A stretch of DNA of 53,599 nt from Bdellovibrionales bacterium (GTDB lineage: Bacteria; Bdellovibrionota; UBA1018; CAIMNF01): contig JAGWXK010000004.1 in NCBI GenBank assembly GCA_018969905.1, forward strand, positions 1 to 53,599. The letters are read 5' to 3'. The notes under the pieces are model-generated. The model was not told the origin of the DNA. It searched no databases and worked only from the letters and a program-made list of their open reading frames with translations. Of the stretch, positions 48,661 through 48,783 are shown in pieces. Every line of letters starts with the position of its first letter. Position 1 is the stretch's first letter. Made by a program: the position numbers and the translations under genes.

Positions 48661-48783
48661 ACGCATGGTCTGTCTTTTGGGATTGGTATTTTGCCGACTC
48701 TCGCGAGCGCAGGATGCGCGAAAGCGAGGCCGCGTGATGCGGCTCGGAGGAAAAAAATCAATCTCAAAAGACAGCCTGGGCGT
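48661..48783. repeat. Palindromic structured element, family A copy 3, abutting valS stop codon
   Basis: ctgtcttttgggattggtatttt / aaaaaaatcaatctcaaaagacag arms flanking core gccgactctcgcgag...gcgaaagcgaggccgcgtgatgcggctcggagg. Confidence 0.88.

What the first reader, a model, noticed from the sequence alone, without database searches (positions are those of the whole stretch)
48661..48783. Family A structured element, copy 3: conserved core inside copy-specific complementary arms, abutting the valS stop
Seen directly: 48661-48783 is a 123-nt near-palindrome filling the gap from 40 nt after rimI to the base next to the valS stop codon (48784). Arms ctgtcttttgggattggtatttt and aaaaaatcaatctcaaaagacag pair at about 22/23 positions, including two G-U pairs on the + strand. 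The interior gccgactCTCGCGAG...gcgaaagCGAGgCCGCgtgatGCGGCTCGgagg holds a perfect 8-nt palindrome and a hairpin, and matches copies at 26752 and 36150. The arms share no sequence with the other copies' arms, yet each copy stays self-complementary. That is covariation-like evidence for a structured RNA or DNA hairpin family with a conserved apex, the reverse of attC sites. Inference: a new mobile/structural element, a 3'-UTR RNA, or an element that inserts into terminator hairpins.
Basis: partly seen in the sequence, partly recalled or inferred. Interest (0 to 1): 0.82.

Follow-up and report, generated by a model that had tools for sequence, protein, structure and literature searches.

The report
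Dispersed hairpins with host-derived arms
A 57-base folded motif is scattered through predatory-type (Bdellovibrionales) lake bacteria, each copy sitting at the tip of a long hairpin whose two arms are largely a mirror copy of whatever DNA was already at that spot (even the ends of genes and tRNAs), so it is a new kind of dispersed hairpin element and a natural test of how long RNA stems arise.

Summary
Confirmed, and larger than reported. The 48661-48783 hairpin belongs to a dispersed family: 22 copies in this genome, 32 and 19 in two close Bdellovibrionales relatives, 26 in a genus of another family, and single copies elsewhere in the phylum; Rfam has no match. The conserved part is a ~57-nt three-way junction ("tip"). 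Base-pair covariation is very strong. G-U wobbles outnumber A-C mismatches in the tip and inner stem but not in the outer stem, so the + strand is selected as a folded single strand (RNA most likely). The arms are explained mainly by origin, not sequence conservation. At a signal-peptide gene, next to valS and behind tRNA-Ser, one arm is native DNA (gene or tRNA end included) and the other is its inverted copy; relatives without the element lack it. At orthologous loci the tip is often inverted between the arms. Both facts fit template switching at inverted repeats. About 40% of the copies in the close trio also lie between the inverted ends of a 1.03-kb IS1-like insertion sequence and are probably mobilised as MITEs. 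How the tip reaches new sites, and its function, are not shown. A CsrA-binding role is possible but weak.

The parts
48661..48783 (+). Copy 3, the element of the finding, between rimI and valS
48693..48750 (+). Tip: conserved three-way junction (P2 48700-48704/48724-48728; P2a 48707-48710/48716-48719 with loop AGGAT; P3 48729-48733/48739-48743 with loop GTGAT)
   Evidence: alignment A1 and pair counts
48670..48692 (+). Left arm of P1; with the stretch to its left it resembles an inverted copy of the valS end
48752..48774 (+). Right arm of P1
   Evidence: valS C-terminus next to it is native
48660..48784 (.). Whole inverted repeat of copy 3: arms of 36 nt, 78% complementary, reaching the last base of the valS stop codon
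26739..26886 (+). Copy 1: tip 26784-26840; inverted repeat of 48 nt (77%). The right arm is native coding DNA (end of ornithine aminotransferase gene and start of a signal-peptide gene), the left arm is the inverted copy
26715..26737 (+). Single transposon-end-like sequence (AACTGGCTCCGAAGAATCGGGG) left of copy 1; none on its right
36150..36310 (+). Copy 2: diverged variant with ~58-nt extra hairpin domain in the P2a position of the tip, upstream of the serS end
   Evidence: serS

Best explanation
It is a dispersed foldback element. The heritable part is a ~57-nt three-way-junction tip that is selected as a folded single strand on the + strand, most likely as RNA. The long stem is not carried along as fixed sequence. 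When a tip arrives, DNA next to it (usually at the end of a gene lying on the opposite strand to the right) is copied as an inverted duplication on the other side, by fold-back or template-switch synthesis. This makes a long hairpin whose arms are local DNA. Later template switching between the arms keeps them matching and sometimes flips the tip. In the window's own lineage many copies also lie between inverted ends of a 1.03-kb IS1-like insertion sequence and probably spread as MITEs. Shown: the family, the structure, strand-biased wobbles, native right arm at one locus, inverted gene or tRNA ends, tip inversions, shared transposon ends. Inferred: RNA rather than single-stranded DNA, the template-switch mechanism, transposase action. 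Unknown: how the tip moves to a new site and what it does.
For: Copies: 119 in 14 genomes, two more genomes in other families of the phylum. Structure: 94.8% of cells paired against 71% shuffled; 402 double changes against 105. G-U versus A-C: tip 33:8, P1 inner plus base 70:25, P1 outer 26:32. Native arm: copy 1 lies in a signal peptide that is uninterrupted in G002 (MRVIEKTLGLILML...) and short in G001, G007, G011, G012, G013; the right arm aligns with the G002 native sequence. Inverted tRNA-Ser end in the left arm in G002, G011, G013 (0 of 500 shuffles); six tRNA-Ser loci without a hairpin lack it. Gene ends inside the inverted repeat: right side 13 (plus 5 tRNA loci), left side 3. Tip orientation opposite at 6 of 14 shared loci, two with direct arm evidence (L012/L036 clearly, 96% on opposite sides against 62-64%; L002/L030 more weakly). 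Template switching is known to homogenise inverted-repeat arms and invert spacers (PMC8604942) and to create RNA stems (PMC8794818). Transposon ends: 17, 44 and 20 hits with 0 in controls, three pairs 1.03 kb apart enclosing a transposase gene.
Against: Only one locus gives a readable native site with the native arm recognisable, and copy 1 carries a transposon-end-like sequence on one side, so a transposon event at that site is not excluded. At valS the outer similarity is weak on its own. Flips at four of the six loci could be separate insertions. Arms of many close copies are shared within subfamilies. No enzyme for tip movement was found: reverse transcriptases do not follow copy number, Y1 transposase genes do so only loosely and no copy lies next to them. 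Clear target-site duplications were not seen by eye at three insertion-sequence copies and one MITE copy. All genomes compared may be metagenome assemblies.
Confidence: 0.55

Rival explanations
1. A standing regulatory RNA in many copies, for instance a CsrA (RsmA) sponge: two GGA hairpin loops about 23 nt apart bind a CsrA dimer, and the long stem protects or processes the RNA.
For: GGA in the P2a loop in 101 of 114 copies and in the P3 loop in 86 of 114; a csrA gene in all 14 genomes of the genus tested; wobble bias shows single-strand selection.
Against: In G044 both loops carry GGA in only 9 of 26 copies, and outside the trio P3 is often ACGAU; the near-invariant motif is only GA. No promoter or terminator predicted at the valS copy, no sense bias to neighbours, tips flip. 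csrA is present with or without copies.
Confidence: 0.2
2. An ordinary MITE of the IS1-like insertion sequence; the tip is just its filler and the arms its long terminal repeats.
For: Transposon ends at both sides of 7 of 19, 3 of 17 and 18 of 34 copies; identical ends on a 1.03-kb element with a 303-aa transposase.
Against: Many copies have no such ends; G044 copies have a different outer region, and tips are conserved across families of the phylum. Inverted gene and tRNA ends are not expected of a MITE.
Confidence: 0.1
3. A single-stranded-DNA hairpin moved by a Y1 (RAYT or IS200/IS605-like) transposase, like REP elements.
For: All four genomes with many copies have Y1 genes; G-T is also tolerated better than A-C in single-stranded DNA (general knowledge); intergenic positions.
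Against: The single trio gene lacks a clear HUH motif and catalytic tyrosine by eye; no copy within the loci holding Y1 genes; genomes with Y1 genes can have no copies (G008, G012).
Confidence: 0.1
4. A short retroelement: the tip RNA is reverse-transcribed from a nicked host strand (target-primed), and the cDNA folds back and copies the host strand.
For: Predicts the observed polarity, with native DNA to the right of the + strand core, and + strand RNA selection.
Against: No RVT_1 gene found in G010, G011, G003 or G030, which hold copies; no associated enzyme identified.
Confidence: 0.05

Closest known systems
MITEs of IS1-like insertion sequences
   Same: Short, non-coding, ends identical to an autonomous element in the same genome (part of the copies)
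   Different: Tip is conserved where those ends are absent; arms are local sequence; single-strand structure is selected
REP elements and REPINs with RAYT transposases
   Same: Dispersed intergenic hairpins, tens of copies per genome
   Different: Here the apex is conserved and the stem is not; no RAYT next to copies
Template-switch-born RNA hairpins and inverted-repeat arm homogenisation (PMC8794818, PMC8604942)
   Same: Inverted copies of local DNA, arm matching by multi-base changes, spacer inversion
   Different: Those are isolated mutations; here one conserved tip recurs at the apex at over 100 sites
Integron attC sites
   Same: Structure kept while sequence varies
   Different: Ends conserved and centre variable in attC, the reverse here
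Rickettsia palindromic elements
   Same: Palindromic repeat read through in frame in a gene (copy 1 only)
   Different: No sequence test done; most copies here are intergenic
CsrB/RsmZ-type CsrA-binding RNAs
   Same: GGA in hairpin loops (CAGGAUG)
   Different: GGA not kept in all lineages; no Rfam match; dispersed copies

Membership tests
MITE of an IS1-like insertion sequence | Terminal inverted repeats identical to an autonomous element in the same genome | tested here: met
   Met only for part of the trio copies:
MITE of an IS1-like insertion sequence | Every member carries those ends | tested here: not met
   many copies without them
MITE of an IS1-like insertion sequence | Target-site duplication of fixed length | tested here: inconclusive
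   None recognised by eye at L082, L088, L086 or L004
IS1 family (the autonomous partner) | Transposase over the NCBIfam cut-off for IS1 | tested here: not met
   NF033558, 24.7 bits against a cut-off of 100; only distantly related
REP/REPIN | RAYT gene flanked by or close to copies | tested here: not met
   No tip in loci around the Y1 genes searched
Integron attC | Conserved end boxes with variable centre | tested here: not met
   Alignment A1: centre conserved, ends variable
Rfam families, including HEARO/omega RNA and CsrB/RsmY/RsmZ | Match at the curated gathering score | tested here: not met
   weak-score search gave only long-stem microRNA-like and tRNA-region matches
CsrA-binding RNA | GGA in hairpin loops kept across the family | tested here: not met
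   P2a 101/114, P3 86/114, both loops in 9/26 of G044
CsrA-binding RNA | Binds CsrA and is transcribed | not testable with these tools
   No RNA or binding data
Rickettsia palindromic elements | Sequence similarity to RPE families | not tested
   Named from general knowledge only

The most novel reading that the evidence does not exclude
A new class of mobile element whose only inherited part is a ~57-nt structured RNA or single-stranded DNA tip. On insertion it builds its own long stem by copying the target DNA as an inverted duplication, and the tip then flips back and forth inside that stem. It would be mobile through a so far unknown fold-back or target-primed route.
Probability: 0.3. Interest if true: 0.9.

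Novelty: new variant of a known kind. Interest (0 to 1): 0.72.

Why it matters
Strong covariation is normally read as proof of RNA structure under selection. Here one family separates the two sources: tip and inner stem show strand-specific selection, while the outer arms stay complementary without it and are copies of local DNA. With over 100 copies, orthologous pairs and an uninterrupted native site, it makes the question of how long stems arise and stay matched (selection or template switching) directly testable in bacteria. If the tip moves by itself, it would be among the smallest mobile units known.

Tried and rejected
Known RNA family: no match. Insertion into terminator hairpins: not supported. 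3'-UTR or terminator of the left gene: no orientation bias. Reverse transcriptase as the partner: presence does not follow copies. Y1/RAYT partner: not adjacent, trio protein looks degenerate. Phage or plasmid carriage: no exact pattern match in viral contigs, no plasmid match. Eight hits of the genome-wide pattern outside Bdellovibrionales lack the left half of the tip and are chance or coding matches. Strict CsrA-site reading: not kept in G044. Literature on such a repeat in Bdellovibrio: none recognised.

Full report
What is there. The hairpin lies at 48661-48783, 40 nt after rimI and abutting the valS stop codon, as described. It folds at -62 kcal/mol on the + strand and -51.7 on the - strand, both well below shuffles. 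BLAST finds 19 places in its own genome. A covariance model built from 42 copies finds 22 in this genome, 32 in G002, 19 in G010, 26 in G044 (another family of the order) and 1 to 5 in ten more genomes. Phylum-wide, two further genomes in other families carry it, with the same plan: about 28 bp of matched stem and the same tip. Contig lengths identify G002 and G010 as Bdellovibrionales lake MAGs ZE-Jul18-80 and RE-15aug16-115. Rfam has nothing.

Anatomy. The tip is GCC-GA-C, then stem P2 (CTCGC/GCGAG, or CTTGC/GCAAG in 11 copies), a small hairpin P2a with a GA-containing loop, a coaxial hairpin P3 (GCCGC-AGGAN-GCGGC), and TCGGAGGC closing the stem with tandem G-A opposite G-A. Three copies have a ~58-nt extra domain in place of P2a, among them window copy 2. 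Stem P1 of 25 or more bp follows. In many copies a decayed internal loop and a further outer helix come next. In alignment A1, 94.8% of cells pair, 30 of 42 pairs show double changes and 402 cells carry them, against 24 pairs and 105 cells in shuffles; sliding the partners by one column destroys this.

Which strand. If only DNA complementarity mattered, G-T and A-C mispairs should be equally common. Counted over the copies, the tip has 33 against 8, P1 base plus inner 15 bp 70 against 25, and the outer 10 bp 26 against 32. So the core strand is selected as a folded single strand, in the tip and about 17 bp of stem only. Copies are related, so these counts are not independent, and the alignment was fitted to the structure. 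Single-stranded DNA is not excluded.

Where arms come from. Copy 1 of the window lies at the join of the ornithine aminotransferase gene and a signal-peptide gene. G002 has the native, uninterrupted signal peptide there, and five other genomes of the genus also have a short one. The right arm of copy 1 aligns with the G002 native coding sequence. The left arm is its inverted copy: 48 nt, 77%, running past the start codon. The reading frame stays open through the element in G000. At valS, the C-terminus is native; relatives outside the trio have no element, and the trio's left arm resembles an inverted copy up to the stop codon (36 nt, 78%), although its outer part is not significant alone. Behind tRNA-Ser(UGA), the left arm in G002, G013 and G011 contains an inverted copy of the tRNA 3' end (z 9 to 11, 0 of 500), while six genomes without a hairpin lack it. 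Where a gene end falls inside the inverted repeat it is on the right, on the minus strand, in 13 copies plus 5 tRNA loci, and on the left in 3. Some of these are orthologues, so the independent number is nearer 14 to 3. In copies without transposon ends the inverted repeat reaches beyond the 25-bp arms far more than when left and right sides are taken from different copies.

Flipping tips. At 14 loci shared between G000, G002 and G010, the tip has opposite orientation at six. For L012/L036 the internal loops and outer arms stay with their flanks (96% on opposite sides against 62-64%) while the tip is turned, so only the centre was inverted; L002/L030 shows the same less strongly. The other four could be separate insertions. 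Template switching at inverted repeats is reported to do both things, homogenise arms and invert the spacer (PMC8604942), and to create and maintain RNA stems (PMC8794818). That is why I commit to it for the arms.

Transposon layer. Most trio copies with shared outer arms end in AACTGGCMTCTTTGARTGGGCATGG. This pattern has 17, 44 and 20 hits in G000, G002 and G010 and none in the reversed control; pairs lie about 198 bp apart (tip copies) or 1.03 kb apart. The long ones encode a 303-aa transposase with thousands of relatives and a weak IS1 match. Both ends are present in 7 of 19, 3 of 17 and 18 of 34 copies. Pairs with a deleted or reduced hairpin exist, so end and tip are separable. I read this as later MITE amplification of some tip hairpins (inference).

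Function. The loops resemble CsrA sites (CAGGAUG) and csrA is present in all 14 genomes of the genus tested, but GGA is not kept in G044. No promoter or intrinsic terminator is predicted around copy 3. Copies lie between genes apart from copy 1 and a partial one. I leave function open and rate a CsrA sponge at 0.2.

Limits. The comparison genomes appear to be metagenome assemblies; hairpins break assemblies, and one tRNA-Ser contig starts inside the tRNA gene (G007). E-values of the covariance model are rough. Gene calls come from a home-made codon-usage caller.

Noticed in passing
window 25297-25420: Another long hairpin (43-nt arms, 81% complementary) with a different tip (GCGAATGAGGCGTATGCTCAAATACGTCGGAATGAGC), its right arm ending next to the stop codon of the minus-strand ORF at 25422: same plan, other tip.
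   Followed up: partly
L262 (G010) and L268 (G009), downstream of tRNA-Ser(UGA): Long hairpins with two further unrelated tips at the same tRNA; in G010 an inverted copy of the tRNA 3' end is also found, in G009 it is only suggested by eye. The G010 tip recurs twice in tandem in G002 (L105). Suggests interchangeable tips.
   Followed up: partly
window 25422-26882: ORF stays open in frame through copy 1, replacing the native signal peptide start by about 60 extra residues followed by a new signal-peptide-like stretch; the reading in G010 looks the same by eye.
   Followed up: partly
G044 copies, L145-L164: Outer region has its own conserved asymmetric motif (GACGTCCTCGCC on the left, GGCTGCGGAATGTC on the right); L153 carries it reversed relative to the tip. 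Related sites (AACAACGTCCTCGCC) occur elsewhere in that genome.
   Followed up: partly
G000:C35, L088: One insertion-sequence copy is flanked by an inverted repeat of host DNA (CCCCAATTG / CAATTGCGGGG), as if inserted in a palindrome.
   Followed up: no
window copies 2 and 3: Both lie just downstream of aminoacyl-tRNA synthetase genes (serS, valS), and copies in other genomes lie behind tRNA-Ser and tRNA-Pro; may be chance.
   Followed up: no
L300, L301, L303: Single-copy Y1-like protein beside an mltA-like gene in G000, G010 and G002, apparently without the catalytic residues: a possible domesticated RAYT.
   Followed up: no
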